Below are positions 24,935 to 64,000 of a stretch of 64,000 nucleotides of DNA, one piece after another. Source of the stretch: Apostichopus japonicus. Its lineage: Eukaryota; Echinodermata; Holothuroidea; Aspidochirotida; Stichopodidae. The position numbers and the translations under genes are program-made. Location of the stretch: NCBI RefSeq assembly GCF_037975245.1, contig NC_092577.1:3493501-3557500 (forward strand), in the 5' to 3' direction. Numbering within the stretch: position 1 is the first letter of the stretch; each line of letters begins with the position of its first letter. Under the pieces are notes generated by a model that was not told where the DNA came from, searched no databases, and worked only from the letters and a program-made list of their open reading frames with translations.

Positions 24935-25667
24935 GATCCTTGTTGAATATGTGTAGTTGTCAGGCAGATCTGTAAGTATCATTGTTTGAAAAAAAAAGGA
25001 AATGCGAGAATCAAAGATCAAATCAATCACTTTTAATATAATGTTTCCACCCGGTATGAGTTCTCTGCTACTACGGCTATGTTGCTACTTTTTGTGTGTT
25101 AATAGTTCAATACAATATTCTGAAGAATTTTGAAGCAGAGTTTACTGGTTTTCTGTGACGCAACCGGCCATATGTTTGACCAAATCGAGAGAACAAATTC
25201 GCCAACTGAATGAAGTTACTGTCATCTTATGACAATAGAGTTTGTAAATGGGTAGGAAATATGTGGGTCTTAATTCGTTGGGATTTCTCAGCAAAAAGTT
25301 AAGGATTTTCTTTTCTTTTGAAATGTTGCAATGAATTGATCGACACATAGTCCTCAATGCTAGTTATTAAATGATTGTAAACAAGCACATCAACTTATAC
25401 TTTTAAAGTGTATTTTGTGGTAGAAAATTTACGAGAATATAATCAAAATCTGAAAATTCTGCAGCTTCCAGAGATGGCGGTCTCTGAAACACTATTAAGG
25501 GACATGGTTACAAACACATCACATCCACAACAACCAATCCACCCCCCCCTCCCTATCAACACAGAGACCCCCGTGGATACAACATATGTACAAGAATTCC
25601 GTTAGAACGTACCACCCTATTACTACATGAATATTCAGAACAATGTAAAGTACAGCAACAACTGCTC
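24935..25667. other. Upstream flank of the block-2 TRIM gene, duplicated at 49651-50560 and 52410-52500
   Basis: Matches the upstream flank of the TRIM gene at 47464: both carry TGACGCAACCGGCCA and ACTTATACTTTT(A/G)AAGTGTATTT. The match resumes after the transposon in the other copy (GTACCACCCTA at 25607 and 52442). So it also gives the empty site of that transposon. No gene is seen. Confidence 0.75.
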
Positions 25668-31560: not shown

Positions 31561-31689
31561 CTATAAACATATTTAATTAATTAAATATTTAATTATAATA
31601 TTGTAATTAATATATCTATATACATACATACAAGAGCGAGACAGGACTCAAAGTTAAAAAAATATCATTCATCTATCCATTCATCCGTC

Positions 31690-32055
31690 CGTCCGTCCGT
31701 CCACTTTGTATGAAATTACATATATATAAATTGATCTCCTCTTAGTGTCAACAACGATGCGTTTTTTGACAGGATCAATTGTCACACACTTTACAATCAG
31801 ATCTGCTGGCCAGTTTCTGATGACGTCACCAATATTGATGACGATACGAATATCGTAAATACCGATTTCATTAGGATTGCAAAATGTTGCTCCTTTGTCA
31901 CGAGATACAGAGCAACAGTACCGAGATGTTTCGTGTCTCTCGGCTGATGTTTTCCGATCCTGCATTTGTAATTTTCCTTTTCGATTAAAGCAGCTTTTTG
32001 CGGCCAATTCTATGATTTGCTCAACCTCATTGATCCCACGGTGCCATAACGACAT
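31690..32055 (-). pseudogene. TRIM propeller fragment
   Basis: The minus-strand frame contains RYCCSVSRDKGATFCNPNEI, GIYDIR, NIGDVIRNWPADL and CVTIDPVKKRIVVDTKRRSI. These align with the propeller start of the intact TRIMs (FYCCFLSPHKLATASTPGEI, NVGDVIGNWPANL, CVTTDPVNKHIIVG). Only this part is present, it is followed by a CCGT-type repeat, and the frame ends soon after. It is a relic of a fourth TRIM subtype. Confidence 0.8.
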
Positions 32056-33417
32056 ACATTGCTGCTTATCTATTCAAATCTAACTTCAAATGGTGAAATA
32101 AAAGTCGAAAACTTATAATTTTGAACGTTGTTTATCTCGAAGAGATTTTCCGTTAGGATCGTAATAAACCCCGCCCATAATATGAATATTTAAATTCTAT
32201 GAACGACATATCAATAGACCCTCGCTCTCGACTCTCGACCTAGAGGAATTATAGTTTGCTGGTCTCTGTTCTGAAGTATGGCGTCTTATTAGCACTTCAA
32301 AACAAGCAATGATCTATACGCGAGCGTGTTGCTGCCACAGGCCTCAATCCAACACAACCGAATGTTGGTCCGATGCCTGGCCACTCTCATATCGCGATCA
32401 GTGGTTTCTCAGCACCAAGAGCCAAAAGAGAAGCTATCCTTTTTCAATACTTCAGTAAGTAGGAAGACTCAAAGCTTGATATGTTTCGTCATATGGATGA
32501 CTTTGCTCAATCCAAAAAACGTCAAACGCAACTCCAACAGCAGCCAGCGTTGTAGAATCAACGTCAGCAGTTTGAAGCCGAGAACTATGTCTGTAACAGA
32601 ATGACAGGGACAAAATGAGTAGATCAAGTAAAAAAACAGATACTTTAGACCATAATGTAACAATGTCGATTAAAACGACTATACATCTCTTCTTCCGTCG
32701 ATTGTCACCTGGTCTACGTTTTTTTCTTATGGCCCCAAATCCTTTATTATTCGCACCATTATCCCAAATCATTAGTCTAATATCAACTAAAGACACAATA
32801 TAGTTACCACCTCTGATTGTTTTAATTTTACACTAATATTTGTGCTACTCGGATATGAATCTCTTGGTTCATATTTAATTGACGCCATCTATTTTCTTTG
32901 TTGATCATTGTGATGACAGTGTAACTTGTTTTGCATACGTCGATTATTGATATAAGGGGCGAACAATGATCATTTGACTGCTTATGACCGAAAATGTCCT
33001 GGCACTGGCCTGCATTTAACTTTTCAACAGCTTTTTGTTCGGAACAGCAATGATTTTTTAATGATAAACAACGTTTTCATTTCTTATTATTGGTATGACC
33101 AAAAGGCATTCATTTCGAAATGTGTGAACAATTTCATGACATAGCAAGGCTTTTGACACCAAGTTTTCAATTCACCGGTGGCTTTATAACAACTTAAAAA
33201 CAAACATATTAAACAAAATCTGTACGTACAATACCTTCATAGCAATTGCACCTATACACTTTTTAGACCACGACATTGCAAATTGTGTCGTTGATATTAC
33301 CAGTATGTGGGTATTTCTACAAGACATGTGTATCTTAAAGGATATATAAATTAACACATTGCAAAGTGTATTGCTGTCATGTGCTTAATGCAAGACACAT
33401 TCATAACACTGATTGAC
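32056..33417. other. Intergenic, no gene recognised
   Basis: Open frames on both strands at 32326-32803 have no family resemblance. The rest is AT-rich. Confidence 0.4.
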
Positions 33418-33779: not shown

Positions 33780-35969
33780 TTACTTAAAACTTACTAAGTT
33801 GTACTGAAATATTTTCCCAGTTTTCCAGGTAGACACTAATAATTTTTCTCCTCTTCTGGTGCTCACCGTAGAAATACACGACGCGTCATCGTGCACATGT
33901 CTTGTTGCAAGTAAACGTTGTCCATCGCGACTGTATTGTACTAATAGGCGTTTAAATGAACTCATAGTAACTGCTGCCCACAACATGTAGATGAATTCAT
34001 TTTGGTCAGTGCATACGCCAATGGGCCAACAATTAGAGCTTTTGGTGTTTGGTTTGGCAAACTGGAACATAACCATGCAAGTCGAGCCCGTAATAGAGAT
34101 AGCGTAAGCTTCCATACCGGTTCTATCACACACTATTAGATTATTGCCGTTTACCGCAATGTCTCTGGGCCATCGAACGGTAGATGGAAGGCTAAGGGCA
34201 TGACTGTAATTCAATTGGTCATCGAAGACGGAAATATCTCGGCTGTCTTTATAACCAATGAATATGTCATTGTTGGCCTCATCAACAGTTACACATGATA
34301 CATCTTGACCAAAAGGCCAAACGCTATCGTTATTCTTTAAGTCCATCTCTGTATATGTGCCATCGCGAATGTCATATAGTCCAATTTCATTATTCCAACA
34401 AACTGTTACGACTTTGAACTTTGTCATAAAATCACAATAACGACATTCAAAAGCTAATTCGGATTCAATCTCGTCTTGTCTCAAAGTTGTACCTTTCAAA
34501 TCGATAACAGTAATGTGTGAATGATCTTGCGAAGACTCACCTGTGACGACAATGGTACCTTCTTCATTGCCAGTGATACCGTTAATGCCCCATTGTTTGG
34601 AGTGAATTCCATCGATATCAACCTCGTCATCAGCAACCTCACTGATGTCAACATGGGACTTTCTATCACAATTCTCAAATTTTGTTATCCTGATTTGCGA
34701 TAATACCTTAAAATCAGGAATCTCCCTGTCCATATCTCGCATCAAACTGTCGATCACAGAGCACATCATTGGTATGCACTGGATGTCAGCCCAATCATTT
34801 CGGATCGTAAGATGTGCGCTTACAGTCGCTTGGATATTGTTAAGCCTGCTATCAATCGAATCCCAAAAATCTGATATAGCTTTCATTTCTTCCTGGTTAC
34901 GCCTTGCATTTATTTCGATTTCTGACACGATACGTTTAAATTCTATCTTGAGGTTAGCAAGTTGATCGAACAGTTTACCTTGTTCTTGGTTATTTTCTGC
35001 TTGCAAAGCTTGAAAGGCGGTTTCTAATTCCTTATTCTCCTTTCCACATATTCTATCATACTCCTCATTCAATTCTTGAACTTGTTTCTTTAAACTGAGT
35101 TTATCTGTTGATATTTTTCCAAGGCTAAGTACATCTTCCATTTGTATCATTCCTCTGTCAAGTTTATCGACTTCATTGTGTATTTTGCCTTTAATAATTT
35201 CCTCCATGCGATCAAATTGGTTTTGAATATGGGTTTTTCGTCTTTCAACGACATGCTTTAACTTTTCTGTTGATTTCGTCATAAACGCACGCTTCTTTTG
35301 AACCCTTTCAATGTGATTCAACAAATTATCCATCTTTTGATTGATTCGATTTCGTTCTTCTGATGCCAAATAGGGTACGTCATTGCAAAGCTCGTGATCG
35401 GCATGCTCCACCAAAGAACATTCTCTACACATAAGATGGTTACCATGACATGTTCTGCAACAAAGTTCTAACATATTTTCGGGATGATCACGGCATCTGG
35501 AAATATCTGTTAGTGCAGCCCAATTTGCATTATTCAACTGTCCCGTTTTTAAGTCGTTCATTGATAGTGTACGATGTCGTGACTTAGATGTTGCTCCATG
35601 ATTATCAAAGCAATTCTGACAAATGAAATCATCACAATTGATGCAGAAAGCACCAGCATTCTCTATATTTCGACATGACAGACATTTCCTTCTTGTATCA
35701 ATAGCTTGCTTTATTCTGTGCAGTTGAAGTATGTTCTTCATACTGATGTCAACAAGGAGTCCCTCTACTCCATTCTCTGGTAGTGCGTGAACTATTCCAC
35801 AATCAGGACATTGTAATTTGTTATCATTTCCATCGATAAGACCCATGAGACAACTGGCACAGTATCGATGAAGACATGATAGAAGCTTTGGTTCCTTTAG
35901 CTCATTGAGACAGATGGAGCATATTAGTAAGCTATCATCTGTTTCTGAGAACGGTAACATGGATGTCAT
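33780..35969 (-). CDS. TRIM family protein, second subfamily (RING, two B-boxes, coiled coil, beta-propeller-like C-terminus)
   Basis: Intact 729-residue frame from ATG at 35969 (preceded on the minus strand by CTGCAAAG, a possible 5' UTR acceptor) to the stop at 33780. RING: Cys17, Cys20, Cys32, His34, Cys37, Cys40, Cys54, Cys57. B-box 1 about residues 93-135 (CLSCRNIENAGAFCINCDDF), B-box 2 about 158-200 (CRDHPENMLELCCRTC). A long coiled coil spans about 205-400. The C-terminus has blade-like segments (GTIVVTGESS, GLYDIRDGT, SRDISVFDDQL, NNLIVCDRTG, KTGKIFQYNL). Same architecture as the genes at 22748 and 47464 but clearly diverged through the whole length, so it is an older paralogue. Probable E3 ubiquitin ligase; the substrate is unknown. 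The promoter side carries a 245-bp direct duplication. Confidence 0.93.
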   Translation of the reverse strand: MTSMLPFSETDDSLLICSICLNELKEPKLLSCLHRYCASCLMGLIDGNDNKLQCPDCGIVHALPENGVEGLLVDISMKNILQLHRIKQAIDTRRKCLSCRNIENAGAFCINCDDFICQNCFDNHGATSKSRHRTLSMNDLKTGQLNNANWAALTDISRCRDHPENMLELCCRTCHGNHLMCRECSLVEHADHELCNDVPYLASEERNRINQKMDNLLNHIERVQKKRAFMTKSTEKLKHVVERRKTHIQNQFDRMEEIIKGKIHNEVDKLDRGMIQMEDVLSLGKISTDKLSLKKQVQELNEEYDRICGKENKELETAFQALQAENNQEQGKLFDQLANLKIEFKRIVSEIEINARRNQEEMKAISDFWDSIDSRLNNIQATVSAHLTIRNDWADIQCIPMMCSVIDSLMRDMDREIPDFKVLSQIRITKFENCDRKSHVDISEVADDEVDIDGIHSKQWGINGITGNEEGTIVVTGESSQDHSHITVIDLKGTTLRQDEIESELAFECRYCDFMTKFKVVTVCWNNEIGLYDIRDGTYTEMDLKNNDSVWPFGQDVSCVTVDEANNDIFIGYKDSRDISVFDDQLNYSHALSLPSTVRWPRDIAVNGNNLIVCDRTGMEAYAISITGSTCMVMFQFAKPNTKSSNCWPIGVCTDQNEFIYMLWAAVTMSSFKRLLVQYSRDGQRLLATRHVHDDASCISTVSTRRGEKLLVSTWKTGKIFQYNLVSFK

Positions 35970-36053
35970 CTTTGCAGACCTGGAATGAGCTGGGTCAGGA
36001 ATGAATGGAAATACACGTATTCAAACTTTATTAATTACCAAGGGATCTCAGTG

Positions 36054-41824: not shown

Positions 41825-44470
41825 CCATATACCAGCATAGTCACAGACGAGGAGATTACCTCTATATACAGTGATAACAGTTACATCATTACATCTGGTA
41901 CTGTTATCGAGTGACAGTTATGCAGCTGATCAGTAAATACATAAATATATCTGCTCTCAGTACCAACAATGATGCGTTTTTTGACAGGATCAGTTGTTAC
42001 ACACCTCACGTTCAGATCTGCTGGCCAGTTTACGATGACGTCACCAACATTCGTCTTGTCATATGAACCATCAAGAATATCATAAATACCGATTTCATCA
42101 GGAGTACAAGCTGTTGCAATCTTGTGAGGAGATAGTAAACAACGATACCGATAGATTGCTTGTGTTGATTTTTATCCTATCCTGACTTTCTAAGTTTCCT
42201 TTCCTATTAAGGACATAGATGCGGGAGATAATGTCTTTAGTACCACCCGTGATAACAGAAATACCATCTAAGGTGCTGGTTATATAATCGATGTACCAAG
42301 TTACATGGGTTTTGAACCCCTAAACTTTAACTACAGACTCTTGTGTTCACTAATCGTTACGTTATCAAATAGAAATTTCGTTATATCACCGATTATAAAC
42401 TCAGATAAATATTCTATGTTTGGAGAAATCCTTTTTATTTCTTGTATCAGAGGTTTACGTGCTTCTCTAATATCAGGGAGACAATAAGCGTCTGCCCTTA
42501 ATCTTCTCCGTAACGTCTGTCACATAAGGTCAGGATGCTCTCTTTCCACCCCTGTCGATCTTCTGCAGCTCTTCTCACATCGGACCAGCTTCTCCAGCCA
42601 TTCTTGTCTCTCTCTTTAGTTGCTGTCCTTCTCCAAGTCGTCTTGGGTCTGCCAACCTTCCTCCTTCCTTCTGGTGCCCATTCCATTGCTACTCTTGCAT
42701 GATGTCCTGTCTCCTTCCTCATAATATGACCAATCCAATTCCATCTGCGTCTCCGTATCTCTACACTTATTCTATTTATGCCTGTTTGCTGCATAGTTCT
42801 GTCCAAGGTGTTTTCAGTATTCTTCGTATGTACTTGAACTGAAAAGCATCCAACTTTTGCTCCTCTCTCTTTGTTACTTTCCAAGCTTCGCTTCCATATA
42901 ACAGCACTGATTTTACTAGCGTTTTAAATAGTGTTACTTTTGTCTTTCTGCCTATTGCACCATTTGCCCATATTCTTCCTAGGTTTCTAAATGCACCACG
43001 TTCCTTTCCTAATCTGTTTTTGATGTATTCTGTACCTCCTCCATCTTTACTGACTTTGGCCCCCAGTTATACGAACTCCTCTACGTCTTCCACTTCTATG
43101 TTGTTGATTTTCAGTGGCGCATCTACCCTGTTATTCATTCTCATGTGCTTACATTTCTTCACATTAATATTCAAACCGATTCTTCCTGCCATCTCTTCTA
43201 CTTTCTCTGTCTTTTTCTGGATGTGGTCATGCCTTGCCGATAACAAGGCAATATCGTCCGCAAAATCCAGATCCTCAAGCTGCGTGGTAAATCTCCATCT
43301 GATGCCTCTTCTTTCTCCTGCAAGTACTCTCTTCATCATCCAATCTATTGCTAACAAAAACAGGAACCCGCTCATGACACATCCTTGTTTTATCCCAGAT
43401 GTTACGTGGAAGCACTCAGTTGTTTCACCTTCATCCATAAGTGCGCATTCAACGTTGTCATATAAAGCCTTCACAATTCTAATTATCTTGTCTGGTATCT
43501 GGTACTTAAACTGTTGCGATGTAGAGAGACGAAAGCTTTCTCAAAATCAATAAATTGCACATACAGAGGTGAGTTCCATTCATTTGACTGCTCCAGGATG
43601 TTACGCAGTGTAAAAATCTGCTCTGTTGTACTCCTGTTTGTACGAAAACCAGCTTGTTCTTGTCTCAAAACCTTGTCCACTCCATCCTTTAATCTGTTGA
43701 TGAGCACTCTTCCGAAGATCTTGCTCATAACTGGCAGCAATGTCACGTCTCTCCAGTTGCTGCAATCTGTGAGGTCCATTTTTTTGGGGGGGGGGGATTT
43801 TAACAATTAACCCCTTGTTCCATCTTTTGGGGTTGTCTCCTCTGTCCATATTAAATTAAAGAGGTCTGTTATTCTTTCCACTGTAGCATTTACATCAGCT
43901 TTTAACATTTCAGCTGTTACTTGATCTAAACCTGGGGATTTGCCATTGCCAGTCTTAATCAATGCATCGTGTACTTCCAGCCTTGTAATAACACCTATGT
44001 CGATTTCGACCGCTGCTTCAACACGCTCGTCAGTTTCATGAACCCAGTTCAATGGATCACCTCTGTTTAACACGGCTAAAAATGATCCTTCCATCTATCT
44101 TTTCTAGCCTGCTTGTCTTTAAAAATATTACCATCTATGTCCTTAACAGCAGCAGTAGTGCTCTTTCATATACCTGTCAATTTCCGTGTTATAGCGTAAA
44201 CCTCTTTATAAGCCTTCCATTCTCTGCTGCTCTGCTGCTCTCTCGTCACTTCTAGCACTTCTCTTTACTTCTCTGTCTTTTATTCTGTAATTCTCTCTCC
44301 ATCTCTCTTTGATCCTCTCCGATTTTGTGCTATTAATCTTCATATTAATTTCCCCCCTTTCATCTGCCTCAACCCATGTCTCTGTTGAGATCCAAGGTTT
44401 ACTTACTCTCTTGGTGTATCCTAATATCAGGGAGACACTAAGCGTCTGCCCACTCGTCTTTATATGCATA
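41825..44470 (-). pseudogene. TRIM pseudogene split by a LINE (block 3)
   Basis: 41825-42497 (minus strand) matches the intact TRIM genes from the coiled-coil end to mid-propeller, for example TGATCCTGTCAAAAAACGCA opposite the VTTDPVNK region. Frames are broken by small indels, and the 3' end of the gene is missing. Homology pauses at the LINE and resumes for 18 bases after it (44452-44469, matching the coding for DEWADAQ), then stops at a TA-rich run. RING and B-boxes are lost. It is the block-3 counterpart of the pseudogene at 10926-12560, since both share the same upstream flank. Confidence 0.87.
42498..44421 (-). mobile_element. 5'-truncated RTE-like LINE with 30-bp target-site duplication
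   Basis: Minus-strand pieces run in order from 44421 to 42498. They are KRVSKPWISTETW (linker after the endonuclease), GNGKSPGLDQVTAEML, NWRDVTLLPVMSKIFGRVLI, EQAGFRTNRSTTEQIFTLR, FIDFEKAF, GIKQGCVMSGFLFLLAIDWM, LDFADDIALLSARHD (catalytic motif) and RRRWNWIGHIMRKE, ending GRPKTTWRRT and a stop TAA. The flanking repeat is 42468-42497 and 44422-44451 with one mismatch. The element ends exactly at its stop codon, with no 3' UTR. Several frame changes show it is dead. The clade name is inference from the RT motifs. Confidence 0.9.
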
Positions 44471-47463: not shown

Positions 47464-49650
47464 TTATTTCACTAACAGACCATACGTGTGGACTTCTTTC
47501 ATATGAGAAGTGGCTATCAGTACTTTCTCCTCCCCGTTTGCATCTAATATCGTCAAGCATACAGTATCCTTATCCACTGATCTTGTTGTTAGAACCTGTC
47601 GGCCATCTTGACTGTACTGTACCAGGATACATCTCACCTGACGTGAAATTTTGGCTTTCCATAACATGTATATGAACTCGTACTTGTCTGTGCAGACTTT
47701 GAGAGGACACCAGTCACATTCATCAACATCTGGTTTGGAAAATCCATACATCAGCTTACTCTCTGATCCCTCCATGGAGACTGCATAGGCTCCCCTACTA
47801 CCATTATCACAGACGAGGAGATTACCTCTATATACAGTGATATCAGTCACAACTTTAATTACATCTGGTAATGTTATGGAGTGACAGTACTTCAGCTGAT
47901 CAGTAAAAACATAGATATCTCTGCTCTCAGTACCAACAATGATGTGTTTGTTGACAGGATCAGTCGTTACACAATTCAAATTCAGATTTGCTGGCCAGTT
48001 TCCAATGACATCACCAACATTCTTCGTGACAAATGAACCTTCACGAATATCATAAATACCGATTTCACCAGGAGTACTAGCTGTTGCAAGTTTGTGTGGA
48101 GATAGAAAACAGCAGTAGAACCACACTTGTTCTGTTGGTTTTATCCGATGCTGAGTCATTACATGTCCTCTCTTATTAAGGAGAGTGATGTGGTTAATGT
48201 CATCACTACCACCTGTGATGACAATTTTACCATCCAAGGTACTTGTTATATCATCGATGTACCACGTTAAATTTCCTATGAACACCTTAACTATAACTAC
48301 AGACTCTTCGTGTTCACTAATCGTTACGTTATCAAATAGATTTTTCGTTATGTCACCGATCGTAAAATCAGATATAGATTCTATATCTAGGAATTCCTTT
48401 TTCATTTCTTGTACCAGAGGTTCACAAGCTTCCCTAATATCAGGTATACACTGAGCATCTATCCACTCGTCTTTTGATGCCAGAATAGATGAAGTCGTGG
48501 TTGTAAAGTTCTCGTAACGTTCAATAATCTGCTGACAATGATTTGATATTTTCTGAAGCTCATCCATATGTTGCTTTGTGCGAATGCCTATATCCACTGA
48601 CAGTTCCTTTAAATTGTCATCTAACTTTTTAAGCTTCCCATCAACTATTCCCTCGCGTTTATCGCATTTCTCATTAAAAACTAGTGATTCATGATCATAT
48701 TTTCTTTCTGTTTCCTTTGTGATTTCTTCATATTTCTGTTTCACTTCACTCAACTCTTTTTCCTCCCTGACCCTTACTTGTAGTTTTTCATCATCCCTTC
48801 TGTAGTTTATGTCCATCAAGCCATTTTCTCTTTCAGTAGTGACTTTTTTCTTATCGTCTTTGAGTTTGCACAATAGTTGTTCGTGTTGGATTTTCAAAGT
48901 TTCCGCCTTTTCCGCGTTATTTTCAGACAGCTTTCCTATAGTTACTTCAACCTTTCCAGGTAACTCGTATAGTCTACTTTTCAATATGTTTATTTCAGTC
49001 AGTTTCGATTCAAGTAAAATTCTTTCATGACTCGCTAGTTCATTGACTTCATGTAGGTCATGCCCTTTGTGTTTGCTGTAGGTACACGGTACACAAACCG
49101 GTACATTTCTACATGTGCTACAACACAACTGGGCTTGTTGTTTCACATGAATATGGCACCTTGGGTCTTCCGTAAAGGCTGATAATTCTTCTAAAGTGAG
49201 GTTCATGGCTTCTGCGTTTGCTAATTTCAGTATGTGTGGTTGATGATCTTTAAGCATTCTACTGTCCTTGTGAAACTTGTAACATTGTTCACATAAAAAG
49301 TCTCCACACTTAAAGCAATATGCAAACACCTTATTTTTCTTTGAACAGCTAATACATTCCTTTAAGTCTCCGTTATTGGCAGACTTTTGCAAGTTTAAGA
49401 ACTCAAGAACACTCTTCATGTGAAAGTCAGTCTTGAATCCATCCACTCCTTTCTTGGGTACTTGGCAGACTTGCTTACACATTGGACATTCGATTGTTCC
49501 ATCATTGCTTGCTTGGATGACTGTTTTCAAACAGAGACTACAGTATCGGTGAAGACAAGGTAACATTTTTGGTTCGTTAAACTGATCCAAGCAAACAGAA
49601 CACAGGAAGAAGTTCTCCTTCAATTCATTTAGAGAGGTTGAGGTAGCCAT
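47464..49650 (-). CDS. TRIM family protein (RING, two B-boxes, coiled coil, beta-propeller-like C-terminus), sister of the gene at 22748
   Basis: Intact 728-residue frame from ATG at 49650. RING ligands Cys17, Cys20, Cys32, His34, Cys37, Cys40, Cys55, Cys58. B-box 1 starts at Cys99, B-box 2 at Cys165. Coiled coil about 205-400, then blade-like repeats (VITGGSDD, GIYDIREGS, SRDIYVF, GNLLVCDN, KEVHTYGLL). By hand count it differs from its sister at about 10 of the first 200 residues but about 60 of the last 275. Probable E3 ubiquitin ligase. The coding exon is intronless; a TTACAG about 45 bases upstream could be the acceptor of a 5' UTR intron, as in the sister. The 3' flank is shared with 22500-22747 up to the retroelement at 46613-47222. 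Confidence 0.94.
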   Translation of the reverse strand: MATSTSLNELKENFFLCSVCLDQFNEPKMLPCLHRYCSLCLKTVIQASNDGTIECPMCKQVCQVPKKGVDGFKTDFHMKSVLEFLNLQKSANNGDLKECISCSKKNKVFAYCFKCGDFLCEQCYKFHKDSRMLKDHQPHILKLANAEAMNLTLEELSAFTEDPRCHIHVKQQAQLCCSTCRNVPVCVPCTYSKHKGHDLHEVNELASHERILLESKLTEINILKSRLYELPGKVEVTIGKLSENNAEKAETLKIQHEQLLCKLKDDKKKVTTERENGLMDINYRRDDEKLQVRVREEKELSEVKQKYEEITKETERKYDHESLVFNEKCDKREGIVDGKLKKLDDNLKELSVDIGIRTKQHMDELQKISNHCQQIIERYENFTTTTSSILASKDEWIDAQCIPDIREACEPLVQEMKKEFLDIESISDFTIGDITKNLFDNVTISEHEESVVIVKVFIGNLTWYIDDITSTLDGKIVITGGSDDINHITLLNKRGHVMTQHRIKPTEQVWFYCCFLSPHKLATASTPGEIGIYDIREGSFVTKNVGDVIGNWPANLNLNCVTTDPVNKHIIVGTESRDIYVFTDQLKYCHSITLPDVIKVVTDITVYRGNLLVCDNGSRGAYAVSMEGSESKLMYGFSKPDVDECDWCPLKVCTDKYEFIYMLWKAKISRQVRCILVQYSQDGRQVLTTRSVDKDTVCLTILDANGEEKVLIATSHMKEVHTYGLLVK

Positions 49651-49905
49651 GATCCTTGTTGGAGATGTGTATTTGTCTGACAGATCTGTAATTAATATTG
49701 TGTGGCAAAAAGAAAGACAAGAATAAAATGCGACAATCGAAAATCAAATCAATCATTTTTAATATCATTTATCCACCCTGTACGAGTACTATGCTATTGC
49801 GCCACATTTTGTTTTCTGTGACGCAACCGGCCACATGTTGGACCAAATCGAGTGCACAAAATTCGCGAACTGAATTTTGTTACTGCAATTTTATGACAAT
49901 TGAGC

Positions 49906-52623: not shown

Positions 52624-52907
52624 CACTGCAAAAACTCCGGTGTTAACATTTTGGATTTAGCTTGTCGGTGTTGAATTCAGTGTTGATTTGACACCAAAGA
52701 GAATGCAATCTGACCTTCAACCTCGTTCAGGTAGAAGTTTCAGCCAATCCCTTTCCAAGTTACTCTCCTTACCGCGTAAATACACTAAGTCATAGAAACC
52801 GGGACTCCTAATTGGTCCATAGTAGTGGCAGTAATTATCATATCGACATCGTCGGCGAAGCTGATACAACCGCGCAAAGCAGACGAGGTGCAAACGAAGG
52901 TGGCAAA

Positions 52908-55900
52908 ATGCTAATTGTTCGTTTATTTCGAAATGAAGCAAGGAAGGTTGTGGTATTCAAGGAATTCAGAGATTTGATTGGAACCGGTATGCTTTCTTTT
53001 GGAGATAATCTGTGTATAGCCTATATGTTTAAACTTTCTCGTGAAAGGATAGGCAATCTACGGAGGGAAGGGAAGGTTGCCTTTCATTACTTCATCATAG
53101 GCAGATGCCTAACAGACACCTATTGCGTAACTAAGGCCTAGGCTAATTGTTGCCGAAGGCCTTATACTGCTATAGCCTCTAGAGGCCCAAAGCCTGGGCC
53201 TAGGCCTAGTAGTAGTATTAGATCATGTGTAACGTTATATATCATTGCGTAGGCCTATAGAGCTGGCAGTTTAATTACAACTTGCCCTTGAACAGGGCTG
53301 TGCTTCATTTTATATGTATCACTTTTAAATTAGAGTACTTCTTTCCATTTTACTAATACAATGTGAAATGGAGAGTGGTAGTGATACCATAGGCCTAGGC
53401 TACTTCATACTCCATAGTCTCGAATATAATGCATGTATGATGTAGCCTGTAAATTAGGCCTACAGTTCTATTGCCCACCAACAAAACTAGGCTAAGACTA
53501 GACCAAGGCCCTTAAACTTAAAGTAGCCTCACACTCATCATCACACTGATTATAATGCAGGCAACATAATTTTGAGGTGGGTTCTCAATCGTTTAGTGCT
53601 GCGTTAAGCTGCTGTCGAAAGACATGATAAATAAGTTGCATTGAATCTCTTGCTGGTGAGCATGTCTAATCATCTATGTGTTCACGAATAGACATTTTAT
53701 CATTAGTACTAGCAGGCTTAAATGAAATTGTTACATTGGAAAGCCATAGGGCATCAAATTTCATGCCTAGTAGTTTGCATCCCTCAATAATCCACAAGAA
53801 CATTTTATGCAGATTTAGCCTACACAAAGACCAAATATGTGATAGGCCTTGTATGGTTTCCAATATTACCAATTGATGACAGACTGCATATCTTAGATTA
53901 AAATAATCTATGTAAAGCTTATTTGTTATGTTGGTTTTGGCCAACTTTGGACTGCGAAAGGAAGCATACGTCTAGCGTACATGCTTAGAAAGGCAAAAAA
54001 GTAGATAATTTTGAAGCAGTCCATTGCATATTTACATTGTCAATCTTGATTTCCAAAGGAAAACACGTACTGCAGGTCTATGTGATTTTACTGTAGGCTT
54101 TTTTCTGCAAGGCATGTGTAGGGTGAATGTATTGCAGTCTACATGGTAGTTTTATTACCATTAAATGTTGGCTAATTGCCTCGTTAGGGCAAATTCATAA
54201 TAAATCAGCAGTTGGTCACCATTTGAATGACAAATTCAGACAAATGAAGCCCCAACTCTTTGTCACTATTTTCTGTTTGTATTCACTATCTTGCAAACAC
54301 GCAATTTGCTGAGAAAAATGACTTTGAGTATAAGTTAACGCTCTCTGTGCAGGCCAGCTTAAGGCAATAAATTTAATGATACAAGGTCAAGGGCTGTTAA
54401 ATTTAATGCGTATAGACCTATTATAGGGCTAATTCCTAACAAGATAGACGTAATTAATATATGCATGACTAAATCAAAAGTATGGCACTTGCTGGTTTAT
54501 TCAATTTTCTTTCATATATGATACAGCAAAGAAGAAATTCAAAATTGCTGAAGATGTGATACTTGTGGATAAAGAGGATGGAGCAGAGATTGATGAAGAT
54601 TCTCTTGTACCTCTCCTTGAAATGGAGCCAAACACAGCAATCATGGTGTTAAAGAGAGGTGAAAAGTGGGGTAAGTGGCAAATGAGGAAGCTCCAAACAA
54701 CGCAAAATACTCTGCTGACATGAATAACCAGATGTGTTCCCAATGGTAAAATGTAGGTTAGTGTGTGATGAATGTAAGTTAGTGTGGTGGGATCTCTGAC
54801 AACATTTCCAGGGAATTAGCCTATACCTTTTGTCACAGAGAAGATCCCAGAGGTCCCTGAAAAAAATGACATTTGTTGGTGTTTTCGCCTCGTTTGTTGG
54901 ATAAAACCTCAGACTGGCTCCTTGATCCCCAGCATTTCAAATTGGGAATTTTGTTCAGTTTTCATACCACATTGTGATAGTGTGTAAGCATAGTTTATAC
55001 AGTGGCAGTCACGATCATATGGTCAAGATAACAAGGGTTGAACGTTGAATTTTGACTGCAGTTCATCAGCGTTGTATTGTTTTTTCCATAATTTAGGCGA
55101 TTCCCACACGTAAAACATAGAAGATTTAAAGAAATGTCTCATGTAGTGAGGGTATATATGCAAGTACAGCAAAACAGATAAGGCTTAATTGCAACTAAGG
55201 AGTAGCAGCGCTGCGGCAGTTTTAATGTCTGGTTCTTATGACTAGTTCTGTGAAGTTTTGAAATCAACAGGTTACATTAATTGCCATTTTTTTGCTTAAC
55301 AGCAGATTTTCTTTCCTTTAGTATCTCCAGCAGCTGCAAGGGTTAAAATAGACAGCAATTCAGACACTGATGTAATTTCTGAGGAAGATGATACTCAAGA
55401 TCATGTTAATCTTCCCTTCTGCACCTCCCATGAAAAGATTAAGGGAAACAGAAGCAACAACAAATGAGGCAGCTGAGGTAATCACATTTAAACATTTCTT
55501 TTAATGTTGAGGGCTTTATACCATTCAATGGAAACCTGCAACTTGGCAAAACATTTGCTCCAATTAGCAAGTTTTGCTATCCTCCTTAGCATGTACAGTA
55601 ACAATCTTTGTGAAAATGTATTGTATTCATTGATAATGCTTGAATCCACATTGCTCCCAAAGACTTTTGATATAGCATAAACAACTCAAGAAGCAGCATA
55701 CATTGGTGTTGGATTTGGGGTTTGACATCTTAACTGAACAGAAATGTTACTTTTGAGATGTTTCAAATTTGCTATTAACTTGCAAGATTCTGAACAGTCA
55801 ATAACCTAACAAATTGATGTAGCCTTAAACTTTATGGGTTGAGGTGGAGAGCCCGGGGGGGGGGGGGGGGATGGGTGTCACCAGTGTAAACTATGAATGG

Positions 55901-58900
55901 ATTTGGTGGGAAAATAAGTGGTACTGACGTTTTGATGCTGGGAAGATCTCCTGCAGAAGTGAAGTCTGGATTTGGAATGGTCTTTGGGTATCCAATTTAG
56001 GATTTCAAAGGACATTAGAGAACAATAATACTAATATTAAAATAAAAAGAATGAAGGCCTTTTACTAATTTATGTTACGAAAGCTCTGATTATGAATCTC
56101 TAAAGTTCATTACAACTTTCAAGAATCCTTGTATTTTTTTCCTACACTTTAATAAAGCTCATAAGGGCAGTTCTTCAAAAAAGTGCAAGTGGAGCCACTG
56201 TTTTAGCTGAATACAGAGCCCAAAAGTGTCTCAGCGAAAAGTCCAGGAGATTGTTGGTAAACATTGTAGTTGCTAACATGATGGAAGTACATGGGTAAGT
56301 TTTTTTTTGTAGTTGTAAACATAGAAAATCATGATTGCTGCAATGAAATGTTTAAAACTTTAACATGTCTATGAACATGGATTAATTGACACTTGTTGTA
56401 ACTATGTAAGTGCTCCATTGATGAAACATTTAGATGGTCAACCCATGAAGATAGTTGGAAAATTGGAGTAGCAATTTCTGACTGCCACACTTGTGTCAAT
56501 TTTCAACCAGGCTTGGTATGTTCCCGTTACAGAATTGAATCCCGGTCAAAATTGATGGCAAAATTTTTACCCATTTTTGTGTGCTGACACGAAAACAAAT
56601 CTTGGATCCTTAAAATCTTGGATCCTCACATGCCCAAGCAGAACTTTGCATAATTTTGAACCAATCGTTTTAGCAATGCAGTGGCTAAATTGAGGACTTA
56701 GGGAAAACAAATTCTCAACTTTTGACTTTTGTCTCAAAATTTTGACCTTTTCACCTTACAGTTTGAGTGTTCTTTGTCAAAACTGTAATTTTACTCAGTC
56801 AAAATTGTGGCTTCTTGTCTGGGAATTTTGGCTTTTCAGTACACAATCTTACTATCTCAAACTTTTGGATTTTGGTATCAAACTGTTGCCTTTTCATCCC
56901 AAACAACTGACTAATTTCTATCAATTTTGACTTAATAAGTTATCATAATGACTCGACCTTTCCGTCTAAAAATGTTCACCTATTTATCTTACAACAGAGT
57001 TAGTTTTTGCTAAAATTGGTTCATATGTCATATTTTCAGATAAATTATACCTTACAGTTGTAGGAGATATTTGAAAGCTAGTGTGGTGTAATTGAGACTA
57101 GGAAATCAGAGATCAGACCCTTCAGGATATCAGATCCTGATGTATTACCAGTGTAAATTATGCATATCAGATCCAGATCAGAGTTCCTAATTTAGAGCTT
57201 GAGAGCGACCAGGATTAACTGCAGATCAGTACCACGCTTGAGATCAGTTCCCCCTTTTTTTCTGTAAACAAGGTTGAGTGGTGACCATTCAACAAATTAT
57301 TAGCCAAAGATTCAAGAACATACAGTAGCTGTTCTGTTGACGTGATAGTTTATTAATTCCTATTCTTGATCTCTTGAGGGATCTTAGTAAGTCAGAATAT
57401 CCAATGTTAATACCCCACAGTTCAAGGGGGTGGGGGTGTCTGTTGCTCAGTATCAACCATTGAACACCAGTTATTGCTTTCATTCTAAATATTCTCCACA
57501 GACAATACCATATGCTGAAAGACAGGTTATTGAAATTGTGTACACAAATACTTAGTGGGGCTAACCCCGGCAGTTCGATTTCATGATGTTAGAAACTTTC
57601 CTAGTTCATAACATGTTATATTTCGGAGCTGTGACCAATACAGCAGATAGCTGAGCTCCTTTAAAGACCTTTTCTCTTCTGTGCAGGAGACTTTCAAGGC
57701 CCAGGTTATTAAATTCTGCATTGGTCCATTGTTGTTTTTAAGACATACATAACATTTGAACTGACCAGTATTACAGGTTTATGGCAGATTTGTGGTGAGA
57801 GAAAAGGGCCTTTAAATAATCACTCATTTAATAAGGCAAATATCTAATACACTTATATATATTTTATCCCTACATCTACCATCACAGACGGACTCCACCT
57901 ACGCTCACAAAAAGAAAATATGCAGTTGGTATTGTCAACCTGTTTGAAAACCTTAAAGACCCATGCACACCAACAGATCATGTAAGTAATTAATTTAAAT
58001 AAACTGCAGGAGGACCCAAGACCCCCACCAAGGGTTTTGTGGCTTTAGCACTTGCTGTCATAGGGACATTATTGTAAATTTTGGAACCATACTTCAAAAC
58101 AGTTGTTCTGCAGTATCATAGTTTAACATTAATTGCGGGGAAATAGCATACATGTATAGGAGGGGAAATGGTTTGTCTAATGCAGGGCCATTCAAATTTT
58201 ACATTATAGGCATCATGATCTTTCCAGGGCAAGAGGAGACCTTTTTTTCTCACTTAAAATGTTGGGAAATGCATGATTTGGAACTGGACATTGCCATGGA
58301 AAACATTTCACCCCCCCCCTCTGCAATTCTTCCTCTAGACGCCCATGACTTTAGTAGAAATAGAGAAAGTTGTGGTTAAAGGTCTCTTGTATAAGCGCTG
58401 TAGTTTTGCTAGTTCAAACTAAAATTACTGCCACATACTCATAATTTCTGAGAGTGTTTTTGATGGTAAAGATGTCTTGGAAGCTACTTATGAAAACTCC
58501 TAGCAATTTTTAACCTACAGCTTAACTTGGGAAATGACATTAAGAAGTCTCCAACTGGATAGTGGTACATAAAATGAACCACAGCTAGTACTAGGTACAT
58601 TTCATTATTATTTTCAGGAAGCTTTTTATGATGAAAGAACCAATACAGGATTCCTTGCAGCAAGGATAAAAAACGTCAATAGAGGAGAACGTCGTTCTGA
58701 ACAATCAAACATAACTCCAAAGGACCCTGCCTGCAAACGTGATGGAGGCCCCATGCTTAAAAGGGCATTACCTGCTGTATCTGATAACCTGCAATCTGAA
58801 GATAACACTACAGTAGGTGTAAACTGGATGAAACATACCCCTGCTGTATCTACGGATTCTAAGTTGGTCTTTGAGAAGATGAAAAATACTCTACTAGTGA

Positions 58901-61623
58901 GGAGAAACATGGTCAATGCTATGAATTCAGCAGCGCATATAATAGAGGAATTTCCACAATTCAAGATTACTCCAGGCCTTGTGAGTATGACACAAAGTAT
59001 TCTGACTGGTGTCATGTATGCTATTAGACTGTGGATTGCATGCATTTACAAGTGTGCGGGGGGGGGGGGATATGTCTGTCATGGGGTGAAGAATGGTAGA
59101 TAGTTTCCATTTATGCCTGCATGGTCACTGATGAGTGATCTCCACAGTTCATGAGCAACCTATTCTTGAGCTGCATTCAGAGCTCTACAACAATATCAGC
59201 TGATATATATTAAGAGTCCAAAAAAAATGGACAACCTCATGGCAATAAACAAATGATGTTACTTCAGCAATTTTAGGAACTCCATGAAAGATTTATTTCC
59301 AGCTTTTTGTGTAGAAAAAGTTTTGCCAGCCATAACCAATGCATTCCTGTAATCCTGTAATTTTCTTGCTTGCAGATTGAACAAGACTTCAAATTATTGT
59401 TTCCAGAGGAATACCCAAAGCTACTGGAACAGTGGCCTCTCCTTAAGCAGAAAGTTATTGCTCTTGCAAGAAATAGACTGATAAAGGCGCCACTGCTGAG
59501 CTGCTGGCAACAGTGGACCGTGGACCATGGGAGGATTGGAGTTGGGAAGTAAACAAAGATGCTTCACTTCATCCCCTCACCATCCCCTACATCACCAGTT
59601 GACATGTGCAGAGCTGGTGAAATTGACTTTGTTGCATTACACTCATTACTCAGAGGATGGTGATCAGATGCCATTGTTTATTAGTTGATACTTGTGCAGT
59701 ACCCGCTGACGTGCTGAAGGCCACTTGAAATCTGTCAAGTGGAGTGAAAGCCCATAGTCTGTTCAATTGAAATCATGTGACTGATTTAAAATGCATGAGG
59801 AAATCTCCTTGATCATCTGTAAATATTAAAGCTCACAAAAAATATCCCCCATTAAAATTAAGATAATTCTAAGCTTAACAGAGCAACATCAGCTCAGTTA
59901 TCATGTAGAATACATATGGGGGGTATTAGCTACATCCAAATTATGGAATAAGCATGCCACAGGGAGCTGCATAAAAAAACTATCCAACAGCTAAAATATT
60001 TACAGCTTTCCAATGGCTTAGTAACAGTTTTATTAGAAAGCAAATTATCAATACTTGAGTTACTACCTCAGGTTATTAGGTTATGCATAAAAAGTCTTAA
60101 TCTTCCTCCCCATGTATATTTCTACTTTTGCAGCTTGTGGTTGATAAATTCAAAACAATGAAAAGATTATTTAACTGAACATGAGTGCCATGTCTCTTTA
60201 ATTAATACCTTTTAATTTTAATTTCTTAGGCTGGGACAAAGAGACCGCTACTATACTGCTGGTGCTCTGTCTGTTACCACCTGCAAACCATGGACGTACT
60301 GGAGTGTCAAAATTGCCAGTGATTAAAGCAGTGGACTTTCTCATTCAGTTTGAAAAGGTTTGATAATTTCTGTGTTAGGTGTATTGTGCAGGGAGGATAT
60401 TGGTGAACATAGCACTGCTAGTAGCTCCTTCAAGATCAGCAGTATTGGCCCCAAGTATAGCATGCTGTAATTGTAAAAGTTTGATATGATTATGTAATCA
60501 ATTGACCTGCTACAGGTGCAAACTGATCTATCTGCCTGCACTGCCTTACAGTGATACGAATAGTAGCTATAATGTGCAAACAATTGCCCCGAACAACTTA
60601 ACCCAAGTACCCATGTGCCTTTGCACAACCCAAGTAGTCGTAGGGAGGGGAGAGAAATAGTAAGCTGTACATGTGCTAAGTAGGCCTTCTAAAATGACTT
60701 TTTCTCTACATCAGCCAATGCACTGTGTTTGCAGTGTTATGTCAGGAACCTTAACAGGAGCCAGGCCCTGCAGCAGATTGCAGAGGTCATTTTACAAACC
60801 ATGATAGATTGATTACATAATCACTGAAACTGTTTGGTTATATCCTGCTGTGTTTGGAACCAATATGGGAGATCTAAGTTTAAAGCATTTTGTAATTTCT
60901 CCAAAAGAAAGTGGATACTGTGATATCACTGCCTCTTGCAGACCCTATTGTTAATTTTGTCCTAATTGTGCTACCAATTAAGTCTAACAACTTTGTCTAA
61001 AATGGCCATTTATTTTATGTGGCCAAATGACTGATATTACTTGCAACCAAAAGTCTTATGACTTTTTTTCAGTGGTGTAGTTCCTCCTGTTTCTGAGGCA
61101 CCAAATGTGATGACCATTGTAATTAAAATATTCCTGTGAACAATTCTTCTGCAGTGCAAAGATATGATGGAGCAGTGCACCATAATAACTGTGAGAACTG
61201 TCTGGATCTACTATTGCAAACTTATTGCTCTTTTAGCCAGCCAGTACTGATGGGCTTAAATGCAGAACAGTTTTACCATTACTTGAACTTAAAGATTGCA
61301 TTTTGTAGGTTCAATTTCTTATAATTTATTACTGTGCTGTTGTGTTGTCTGCTTTACAGAGTGGATGTAGTATTGATGCTTTCTTGGAGAACTCCTCAGC
61401 CATGCATCCGTATACAGTATCCTGGGACTTGGACCAACCAAAAGCAGCATATCACAGTACTTACTTCATTATTGTAGACCATCTTGCCTTACCCTGTGCG
61501 GCATATGCTTTAGGGGCATTTGATGCACTATTTAAGAGTCACTATGTGTTTGGCCTCCACTACAGTAAGCATCTCCTTAACTTTTGGACATTTCTTCAAA
61601 CTACAATCTATGGAATACTGTAG
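52908..61623 (+). CDS. CIDE-N domain protein, ORF1 of the EnSpm-like element (about nine exons)
   Basis: Exons inferred from splice sites and phase: 52908-52986, 54527-54670, 55322-55477 (or to 55404), 56158-56294, 57888-57981, 58618-58980, 59376-about 59480, 60230-60357 and 61360-61623. The joined start reads MLIVRLFRNEARKVVVF, then FRDLI, AKKKFKIAEDV, VDKEDGAEIDEDSLV and MVLKRGEKW. This is the CIDE-N pattern (acidic EEDGTEVD-like turn and final G-x-K-W). Later parts: YRAQKCLSEKSRRLLVNIVV, KYAVGIVNLFENLKDP, QDFKLLFPEEYPKLLEQW, TATILLVLCLLPP, and a C-terminal block with DALFKSHYVFGLHYSKHL and LQTTIYGI. Exon 3 needs either a weak donor at 55405 or a 1-base correction near 55415-55420. Exon 7 has two competing frames from about 59476. 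Known: CIDE-N mediates DFF45/DFF40-type pairing. A role here is unknown. Confidence 0.68.
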
Positions 61624-61743
61624 ATATCAATAACACTCATCAGACACCACGTGTGAGGGCACTTCGATCGAAATTGCAAGAATGAGTTGTTTTAAATGCA
61701 AAGCTCATCTTGGTAGTGTACCTACAGTAGGATACTAAGGCAC

Positions 61744-64000
61744 ATGAGATTACATCATGTATTTTATGGTGGGCAGAATCTATTGCTGAAATGTGGCCAG
61801 GGGGCTTGTTGTCAGACGTTTTTCTCATTTAGTGGATTCAGGAAGCAATTAGTTAAGCATGCTCCATTTTCGATACCAGATGGACCTCAGGAATGCATGA
61901 TAAACAATTTGAGGGATAATGATGTTGAACCTATTGAATATGATGATAATGTAGAGGGAGATCAACTTGCTACCTCTGAAATCATTTCCCCTCAGGAACT
62001 TCAGAATCAGGCAGCGGGATTAATATGTAAAATGTCTGCAACCTCAAAGATCTCTCAAAATACTCTAAACCAAATTGCCAACTCAATGGATAATATTATT
62101 GGTGAAATCACAAGTAGTGTGCAAGCTGTTGTTGACAAAACCTTCGAGGAACATGGATTGGAAAAAGATTCGGATGTTTACCATGATATCAAAAAACACA
62201 GAGACAGTCTATCACATCCATTCCAAGAACTAAATTCTGATTTCAAGCGAAGAAAATACTTTAGCCTGCAAGGAATGGTAGAACCTCATGAAATATCATT
62301 GGGAGTACGTATGGAGAGTCGCATTAACAAAGTCACAAGATTGCATGAACAAGTTCCTGTGAATAATACGTTTATATATATACCAATTATTAGAACACTG
62401 GAGCTGCTGCTCAAGCATCCTGATGTTTTGCATTTGTTACTCATGACCACAAAAGTCGTGACCGTGTTATCAGGGATTATTGTGATGCAAACCAATTTCA
62501 GCAAGCCCCTATCTTTCAACAAGATTGCAATGCTCTTCAGTTGCATTTTTTCTATGATGATTTTGAGACAGTGAATCCCTTAGGATCAAAAACTTCTATT
62601 CACAAAATAGGTGCATTCTATTTTGTTTTAAAATATCTACCTCCAAGGTTTAATTCTAGTTTGAATAACATTCACTGTGCTGCCCTTTGCCATACGGAAG
62701 ATATAAACAAATACGGGTTTGATCCAATTCTCAAACACATAGTGGAAGATATAAATTACCTGGCTGAACATGGTATTCTACTTCCAAGTGGACATTACAA
62801 AAAAGGTATCATTACTCAGTTTAGTGCAGACAATCTTGGTGCAAATTCATTATTTGGTTTTGTGGAGAGCTTTTCAGCAAGACATTATTGCCGTCTTTAT
62901 TTGACCAGTCGTGAAGATGCACGACTACTTTACAGCGAAAAAAAAAACATGCAAATGAGAGACAAAGATTCCCACAATTTGCATGTTCAACAGGCAGAAC
63001 AACTTGAAACTGTTCATGTTCAAGGTGTAAAAAGGGGGTCAATTTTAAATAGTTGTGTATCTTTCCATATTCTTCGTAACTTTTCTCTGGATGTGATGCA
63101 TGATCTTCATGAAGGTGTGGTCCAATTTGAAATTAAACTAGTATTATCATATTTAATATCAGATAGAGAGTCACCTCTAATGACACTAGATCTTTTGAAT
63201 AAAGAAATCACAAGTTATGACTACGGATCAACAGAAAAGTCAAACAAGCCCTCCCCAATTAAATTACATGCACATGGCAATTCTATTGGTCAAAAGGCTA
63301 TGCAATCTTGGTGTTTAATTAGACATTTGCCACTTATTATTGGACACCGTTTACAGGAAAGGGACATGCCTTATTTTGAACTGCTGTTGAAGTTACTAGA
63401 TTGTATGGATATAATTTTTTCACCTAAAGTAACTCATGGGTTAATAGCTCAATTGAGAATTTTTATTGAAGAACATCATTCTAAATTCCGTGAGGTATTT
63501 CCAGCTCATTCTCTCATTCCAAAGCATCACTTCATGGTCCATTATCCTACTTGTTTGAGAGAAGTGGGTCCTCTCATCCATGTCTGGTGCATGAGGTATG
63601 AAGCTAAACATGATTATTTCTGTCAAATTGCTGATAATTGTCGAAACTTTAAGAACATATGGAAAACTGTGGTAAAAAGACACCAGATTAATCAAATGTA
63701 AAATTTTAATTCAAAACAGTCATTAGAGACTTTTTATGTGGGACCTGGTGCAGAAACAACTGTATCAAATTTATTATCGGATTGTTTTGACTCTGTTGTC
63801 TCAAAAGTGCCAGATGCTACCCTTCTCACTGAAGTGTTTGATACAAACTGGGTGAAGCTTGGTGGGACTGAATATAAGCGTCACCATATGCTTTGCTATG
63901 ACATGGATGACATGCCATTGTTTGGTCAGGTGAAGCATATACTGATTTATAAGGATATTGTTTATTTTGTGCTTATAGTTTGGAGCACACTGTTTTACAA
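61744..64000 (+). pseudogene. Transposase-like ORF2 of the EnSpm-like element, frame-shifted and with an in-frame stop; runs off the window
   Basis: ATG at 61744. First part (to about 62450): a C2H2-like start (CGQGACCQTFFSFSGFRKQL then VKH), an acidic linker, then a region with YFSLQGMVEP. A single-base frameshift near 62440-62455 moves the frame to the second part. That part has YDDFETVNPLGSK, KIGAFYFVLKYLPPRF, KYGFDPIL, FSADNLGANSLFGFVESFSA, LDVMHDLHEGVV, HSLIPKHHFMVHYP and WCMRYEAKHD. The DD, the SAD, the D-x-x-H in LDVMH and the Glu of RYEAKH fit the catalytic layout known for the CACTA/Mirage/Chapaev group; the residue assignment is inference. TAA at 63699-63701 interrupts it, and the same frame continues (TNWVKLGGTEY, DMPLFGQV) to the window end. 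It resembles multicopy uncharacterised fish and invertebrate proteins. Confidence 0.78.

What the first reader, a model, noticed from the sequence alone, without database searches (positions are those of the whole stretch)
52624..64000. A CIDE-N (apoptotic nuclease-type) domain protein carried as ORF1 of an EnSpm/CACTA-like transposon
Seen: a CACTG terminus, a multi-exon ORF1 whose first two exons join to a CIDE-N-like domain, then about 120 bp later a transposase-like ORF2 on the same strand. CIDE-N is known from DFFA/DFFB and CIDE proteins, where it pairs a DNA-cutting enzyme with its inhibitor. Inference: a transposon that encodes such a domain could use it for self-assembly on DNA (CIDE-N domains can form filaments), to control the transposase, or to interfere with host DNA fragmentation. 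The remaining ORF1 ends in a conserved alpha-helical-looking block of unknown fold. The combination is, as far as I know, not described as a mobile system.
Basis: partly seen in the sequence, partly recalled or inferred. Interest (0 to 1): 0.78.

Follow-up and report, generated by a model that had tools for sequence, protein, structure and literature searches.

The report
Jumping gene carrying cell-death assembly domain
In an unnamed animal genome, a cut-and-paste transposon carries, in its helper protein, a small domain otherwise known from the proteins that shred DNA in dying cells, probably taken from a host gene and perhaps used to chain helper proteins together on the transposon's ends.

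Summary
Exons 1+2 give a significant CIDE-N (Pfam E 4e-11). The window copy is a broken 13.6-kb member of a CACTG-ended EnSpm/CACTA-like family; its right end lies 2.2 kb beyond the window. Ten of ten copies inspected have these termini and a 2-bp TA/CA duplication; three are full length and about 98% identical. In full-length copies C12 and C5, ORF1 (9 exons, 532 aa, CIDE-N first) and ORF2 (824-aa transposase) are open and overlap by 4 nt (ATGA), so they are not 120 bp apart. The rest of ORF1 is an unnamed accessory protein: of 49 transposase matches outside this family, 22 have it within 20 kb, all 22 on the same strand and downstream. Here it lies upstream. CIDE-N was found only in this family (18 of 25 genomic hits) and at six other loci; one of these (C13) splits the domain with a phase-1 intron at the same codon and three more fit it, pointing to capture of host exons. 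Most likely a TnpA-like end-binding accessory protein that oligomerises through a captured CIDE-N; that mechanism is inferred. New variant of a known kind.

The parts
52624..52646 (+). left terminal inverted repeat (CACTGCAAAAACTCCGGTGTTAA...); flank ends in CA, matching the CA after the right end
52624..64000 (+). window part of the 13,597-bp transposon; right end lies 2,220 bp beyond the window (L009:3220)
52640..52690 (+). left subterminal GTGTTRA repeats; 11 of 13 copies of this motif in the full-length element C12 lie in its first or last 350 bp
52908..52986 (+). ORF1 exon 1, first part of CIDE-N; phase-1 splice donor
54527..54670 (+). ORF1 exon 2, second part of CIDE-N
55322..55477 (+). 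ORF1 exon 3, acidic linker (frame broken in this copy)
56158..56294 (+). ORF1 exon 4
57888..57981 (+). ORF1 exon 5
58618..58980 (+). ORF1 exon 6; colinear match in another element family (L042)
59376..59548 (+). ORF1 exon 7 (frame broken in this copy); colinear match in L042
60230..60357 (+). ORF1 exon 8
61360..61685 (+). ORF1 exon 9, conserved C-terminal block (frame broken in this copy); its stop overlaps the ORF2 start by 4 nt
61682..64000 (+). ORF2, transposase (824 aa in intact relatives; broken here; the match continues to window-equivalent about 64160)

Best explanation
This is a degenerate copy of an EnSpm/CACTA-like cut-and-paste transposon that encodes two proteins. Shown: one element unit with inverted CACTG/CAGTG ends, 2-bp target duplications and subterminal GTGTTRA repeats; ORF2, a transposase-like family with many relatives in this genome; ORF1, an accessory protein found near related transposases in this genome; and, in this family alone as far as found, a CIDE-N domain at the ORF1 N-terminus. 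Strongly suggested: CIDE-N was captured as genomic DNA from a host CIDE-N gene, because the intron splitting the domain has the same position and phase. Inferred: ORF1 acts like maize TnpA, binding the subterminal repeats and pairing the ends for ORF2, with CIDE-N adding head-to-tail oligomerisation that raises avidity on the repeat clusters; and ORF2 is translated from a dicistronic mRNA by reinitiation at the ATGA overlap. My estimates: identity 0.93, host capture 0.75, oligomerising end-binding role 0.4, reinitiation 0.35.
For: CIDE-N over the curated cut-off. Ends, 2-bp duplications in 10 of 10 copies, near-identical copies at different places. ORF1 (532 aa) and ORF2 (824 aa) open in C12 and C5 with GT-AG introns. 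ORF2 core aligns with Transposase_21 (E 0.044) and a stretch further on with DUF4218 (E 0.14), both below cut-off, in the order that I recall for plant tnp2 proteins. ORF1 block within 20 kb of 29 of 56 ORF2 matches, 29 of 29 on the same strand. Subterminal GTGTTRA, 11 of 13 in the terminal 350 bp of C12. DREP3 filament residues: charge kept at 6 of 8 mappable positions, including K132 and D167, the two mutated in the paper. Phase-1 intron at the same codon at C13, and borders that fit it at C16 and two C3 loci. Constraint: window versus C12 differ at 94 of 4,056 coding positions and 317 of 7,760 other positions.
Against: No Pfam transposase hit reaches its cut-off. ORF1 has no recognised DNA-binding domain, and binding to GTGTTRA is untested. 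The other families in this genome show no CIDE-N near their ORF1 block, so CIDE-N is not needed by this kind of element in general. A PB1 swap in other families, which I expected, was not found: one PB1 match in the genome at E<=0.001, over 1 Mb from the nearest ORF1 hit. dN/dS of ORF1 between the window copy and C12 is only 0.61, and 1.08-1.17 against the deletion derivatives C22, C18 and C23; the CIDE exons alone carry too few changes to judge. In 27 of 49 other-family transposase rows no ORF1 block was found within 20 kb, though only 150 of 432 ORF1 candidates were scored. Whether those other families have CACTG ends was not tested. No expression data.
Confidence: 0.5

Rival explanations
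1. CIDE-N is a passenger: host exons were captured by accident in a founder element and spread with it, without a role in transposition.
For: CIDE-N was not found near the other ORF1 families; 5 of the 18 family rows carry a stop inside the CIDE-N match; dN/dS of ORF1 against derivatives C22, C18 and C23 is 1.08-1.17, and 0.73-0.98 for their CIDE exons on 4-5 changes each.
Against: In the open full-length copies C12 and C5 it is the first domain of a 532-aa ORF1; window against C12 shows 1 non-synonymous and 2 synonymous changes in 73 CIDE codons, few but not decayed; filament charges mostly kept.
Confidence: 0.28
2. ORF1 uses CIDE-N to bind the host apoptotic nuclease CAD/DFF40 or its inhibitor, either to protect cells in which the element cuts DNA or to exploit host DNA processing.
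For: CIDE domains form homo- and hetero-oligomers (PMC8647176, passages and one section read); the genome has other CIDE-N loci.
Against: No interaction data; likeness to the other CIDE-N loci of the genome is low in the one alignment made.
Confidence: 0.15
3. ORF1 is an inhibitor or chaperone of ORF2, as ICAD is of CAD.
For: Two adjacent genes of one element; tight ATGA coupling.
Against: No CIDE-N was found in ORF2, so CIDE-CIDE pairing between the two is not available.
Confidence: 0.1
4. The CIDE-N match is a chance likeness of a ubiquitin-like fold, or the two exons are not really joined.
For: Single solved CIDE chains are matched only weakly (best E 0.0087); no transcript data.
Against: Profile E 4e-11 over nearly the whole model; splice signals conserved in the four copies aligned; same intron position and phase as the C13 CIDE-N gene.
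Confidence: 0.03

Closest known systems
CACTA/EnSpm transposons (CMC group), including animal TRC elements such as SmTRC1 (PMC1636069, passages read)
   Same: inverted ends, short duplications (2 bp in animal TRC), tnp2-like transposase, internally deleted copies, more than one product
   Different: TRC ends begin CCC; no CIDE-N is mentioned in the passages I saw; here the accessory gene lies before the transposase
Maize Spm TnpA/TnpD pair (described in PMC1636069, passages; TnpA's binding of subterminal repeats recalled)
   Same: two proteins; per the passage, tandem ORFs in one transcript
   Different: no sequence likeness tested; TnpA carries no CIDE-N as far as I recall
CIDE-domain proteins DFF40/DFF45, CIDE-A/B/3, DREP1-4 (PMC8647176, passages and section 3.4 read)
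   Same: N-terminal CIDE-N with the oppositely charged faces mostly kept
   Different: no nuclease or inhibitor domain found; joined to a transposon accessory protein
RAG1-RAG2-like transposons (PMC7204232 and PMC4411706, seen only in a search listing)
   Same: a transposase of the wider CACTA-Transib group with a dedicated second protein in animals
   Different: unrelated accessory protein; convergent genes there, tandem overlapping genes here
Fungal transposons carrying TET/JBP, some of them EnSpm (PMC12730594, passages read)
   Same: a DNA transposon with an extra captured function
   Different: a dioxygenase there, an assembly domain here

Membership tests
CACTA/EnSpm (CMC) DNA transposon | Inverted termini CAC...GTG | tested here: met
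   CACTGCAAAAACTC...GAGTTTTTGCAGTG in 10 of 10 copies with both ends in view
CACTA/EnSpm (CMC) DNA transposon | 2-3 bp target-site duplication | tested here: met
   2 bp in 10 of 10 copies inspected
CACTA/EnSpm (CMC) DNA transposon | clustered subterminal repeats | tested here: met
   11 of 13 GTGTTRA in the terminal 350 bp of C12; no shuffled control run
CACTA/EnSpm (CMC) DNA transposon | DDE transposase of tnp2/Transposase_21 type | tested here: inconclusive
   PF02992 E 0.044, 13.4 bits against 28.6; DUF4218 E 0.14, 12.4 against 27
CACTA/EnSpm (CMC) DNA transposon | C(2)C and H(3-4)H between second D and E | tested here: inconclusive
   A CxxC (YCHLC in C12, YCRLC in C5 and C7) is present in ORF2; catalytic residues placed only by eye against recalled plant motifs
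CIDE-N domain family | Profile match above the curated cut-off | tested here: met
   43.2 bits against 23.5
CIDE-N domain family | Basic and acidic faces for head-to-tail assembly | tested here: inconclusive
   6 of 8 mappable DREP3 positions keep the charge; assembly itself not tested
CAD/ICAD apoptotic nuclease pair | Nuclease or inhibitor domain after CIDE-N | tested here: not met
   No other Pfam family over its cut-off in ORF1 or ORF2
TnpA-like accessory protein | Binds subterminal repeats and is needed for transposition | not testable with these tools
   needs biochemistry

The most novel reading that the evidence does not exclude
A transposon took the polymerising module of the apoptotic DNA-fragmentation machinery from its host and uses a CIDE-N filament of its accessory protein as a synaptic scaffold for transposition, with the gene order rearranged into an overlapping accessory-transposase operon-like unit; the same domain may also tie the element to host CAD/ICAD.
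Probability: 0.25. Interest if true: 0.85.

Novelty: new variant of a known kind. Interest (0 to 1): 0.58.

Why it matters
It links two fields that the papers found here do not connect: CIDE-domain filaments and cut-and-paste transposition. If CIDE-N scaffolds the ends, it gives a genetically simple test of how higher-order assembly helps a DDE transposase. It also shows an animal transposon that appears to have captured host exons with their intron in place, and points to a large, unnamed accessory protein family near CACTA-like transposases. CIDE-N counts in genome annotations may partly count transposons: Hydra is reported as enriched in CIDE-N (PMC7642931, passages), but whether that is this kind of element was not tested.

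Tried and rejected
PB1 as the N-terminal domain of the other ORF1 families (recalled from fish gene predictions): one PB1 match in the genome at E<=0.001 (4 of 4 candidates scored), far from any ORF1 hit, so not supported here. SAM domain: not completed. Family B locus L042 scanned in three forward frames for any Pfam domain up to E 0.1: none. Single-sequence fold of window 62433-63698: mean pLDDT 34.5, not used. ORF2 in viral contigs: no match. Two older relatives of the left end (C1, C7) gave an ORF1 match for exon 1 only, and no ORF2 match, in 9.5 kb each, and were not followed. Paper searches: CIDE-N with transposon (4 papers, of which I looked into the Hydra paper only, by passages); one search asked for 2 of 6 terms and listed 15 of 10,377 papers, none of the 15 holding CIDE-N, so it says little; CIDE domain with transpos- (0 papers). 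The library holds only open-licence papers, and Repbase was not searchable. Seven other paper searches were on neighbouring subjects.
Full report
What was checked. Exons 1+2 of the window joined match PF02017 with E 4.2e-11 (43.2 bits, cut-off 23.5; residues 5-74 of 75, profile 7-75 of 76). No other family reached its cut-off in the nine pieces scanned in that call.

The element. The left 977 bp find 60 matches, with 20 copies besides the window at 88-90% over positions 1-825 or nearly so. Twenty-kb stretches of nine copies, 10 kb of a tenth (C5b), and the window's continuation were compared. Copies C12, C7 and C5 are full length (12,362, 12,386 and 12,400 bp) and 98.0-98.5% identical to C12; the window copy is 13,597 bp. 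The ten copies with both ends in view start CACTGCAAAAACTC and end GAGTTTTTGCAGTG, flanked by a 2-bp repeat: TA in seven, CA in three. C5b shows no clean left end, and its right end was not looked for. Six copies (C16, C3, C22, C18, C23, C2) form a shorter group, 96-99% identical to C16; in the four whose coding content was mapped (C16, C2, C22, C3) no match to ORF1 exons 7-9 or to ORF2 residues 1-763 remains. In C12, 11 of 13 GTGTTRA motifs (both strands) lie in the first or last 350 bp; I ran no shuffled control.

The genes. Aligning the window, C12, C7 and C5 fixed nine exons with GT-AG borders. ORF1 is 532 aa and open in C12 and C5; C7 has one stop. ORF2 is 824 aa, open in C12 and C5 and broken in C7. 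The ORF1 stop and ORF2 start share ATGA, also in the window and, by match coordinates, in the older copy at C9 (L036). The window copy has frame breaks in exons 3, 7 and 9 and in ORF2. ORF2 is related to CACTA transposases by two weak profile matches in the order that I recall for plant tnp2 (Transposase_21 E 0.044 on the core; DUF4218 E 0.14) and has weak C2H2 matches at its N-terminus (E 0.015). All are below the curated cut-offs, so I call the assignment well supported only together with the termini and duplications.

Distribution in the genome. The ORF1 C-terminal block (104 aa of C12) has 150 scored matches of 432 candidates, in many families, several with copies of equal score. ORF2 has 56 matches (55 of 492 candidates scored), mostly about 30-42% identical with long open frames. 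Of the 56, 29 have an ORF1 block within 20 kb, all 29 on the same strand. The 7 rows of the window's own family (C12, C5, C7, the window twice, C9 twice) have it directly upstream. Of the 49 other rows, 22 have it, all 22 downstream by 4.4 to 11.4 kb; 27 have none in the scored list. So the accessory protein is a recurring partner of this transposase, but the order here is reversed. Rows are matches, several are copies of one family, and no family count was made; whether the other families have CACTG ends was not tested. In one other family (L042) the middle of ORF1 is recognisable too, in order: exon 6 (E 0.0011), exon 7 (E 0.0051), exon 9 (1.6e-20).

Where CIDE-N occurs. All 29 first-look candidates for PF02017 were scored; 25 match at E<=1. 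The search goes exon by exon, so short exons can be missed. Eighteen rows are this family; 5 of those 18 carry a stop inside. The other seven rows are six loci: C13 (two exons), C11:17239377, C11:7306662, C16:29538181 and two similar copies on C3. None lies within 100 kb of an ORF1 block listed. I read all six. C13 has the domain split by a phase-1 intron at the codon aligned with the transposon's exon 1-2 border; C16 (first half only) and the two C3 copies (second half only) fit the same border; C11:7306662 ends elsewhere and C11:17239377 is one exon. That these are ordinary host genes is my inference. The shared intron is the main evidence for capture of genomic host exons; the opposite direction is not excluded.

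Does CIDE-N look functional? In DREP3, filaments form between a basic face (K122, K132, K145, K149) and an acidic face (D162, D165, D167, D168, E170), and D167R gives a monomer (PMC8647176, passages and section 3.4 read). Through the HMMER alignment, the transposon keeps K13 (132), K30 (149), D44 (162), E47 (165; the chain has Glu where the paper prints Asp), D49 (167) and E50 (168); it lacks charge at 145 (T26) and 170 (S52); K122 falls outside the alignment. Selection is hard to judge: window against C12 gives dN/dS 0.61 for ORF1 (11.5 synonymous, 24.5 non-synonymous), 0.45 for ORF2, and 0.13 for the CIDE exons on only 3 changes; C5 against C12 gives 0.17 (8 changes) for ORF1 and 0.47 for ORF2, and C7 against C12 gives 0.48 and 0.88; against the deletion derivatives C22, C18 and C23 ORF1 gives 1.08-1.17 and the CIDE exons 0.73-0.98 on 4-5 changes. 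Coding positions differ less than the rest between window and C12 (94 of 4,056 against 317 of 7,760; alignments over 300 bp only).

Mechanism. Maize Spm makes several products, among them TnpA and TnpD, and the TnpD transcript holds both ORFs in tandem (PMC1636069, passages); that TnpA binds subterminal repeats is recalled. By analogy I take ORF1 as the end-binding partner of ORF2, with CIDE-N as an added oligomerisation module. The ATGA overlap suggests one mRNA with reinitiation, but alternative splicing, as in Spm, would do as well. An ICAD-like inhibitor role through CIDE-CIDE pairing is disfavoured because no CIDE-N was found in ORF2. A passenger domain remains the strongest rival.

Novelty. 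The open-licence paper searches made here showed no report of CIDE-N in a transposon (4 papers, listing, plus passages of the Hydra genome paper PMC7642931, which lists CIDE-N among enriched domains; 0 papers). Repbase and other animal genomes could not be searched, so this is not proof. I recall similar ORF1-type proteins in fish gene predictions labelled SAMD3-like; no call tested it.

I lowered one membership row (charged faces) from met to inconclusive, worded the shared intron as one clear locus and three that fit, and added the stops in family rows and the untested ends of the other families.

Noticed in passing
window 61360-61685: The window copy's last ORF1 exon holds two 5-bp insertions relative to its relatives that look like footprints left by excised Tc1/mariner elements (recalled pattern), suggesting that another transposon family was active here.
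   Followed up: no
window 22748-25084, 33780-36020, 47464-49743 (minus strand): Three long open frames of RING/B-box (TRIM-like, by eye) proteins plus fragments at 10926-12246, 20476-20946 and 31681-32073: a local tandem expansion.
   Followed up: no
genome-wide: In 22 of 49 other-family transposase rows the accessory block lies 4.4-11.4 kb downstream, the reverse of the window's order; gene order in these elements seems to have been rearranged at least once.
   Followed up: partly
L016-L027 (copies C16, C3, C23, C18, C2, C22): An internally deleted subfamily (96-99% identical to C16) that kept both ends and ORF1 exons 1-6, apparently amplified on its own; four of the six were mapped for coding content.
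   Followed up: partly
L046, L047 (C3:31096101-31096600 and C3:31072401-31072900): Two similar CIDE-N exons about 24 kb apart in opposite orientation, one with a stop: a duplicated CIDE-N gene or another mobile carrier.
   Followed up: partly
window 18367-19573 and 42498-43540 (minus strand): Reverse-transcriptase-like open-frame fragments, by eye only, probably LINE remnants.
   Followed up: no
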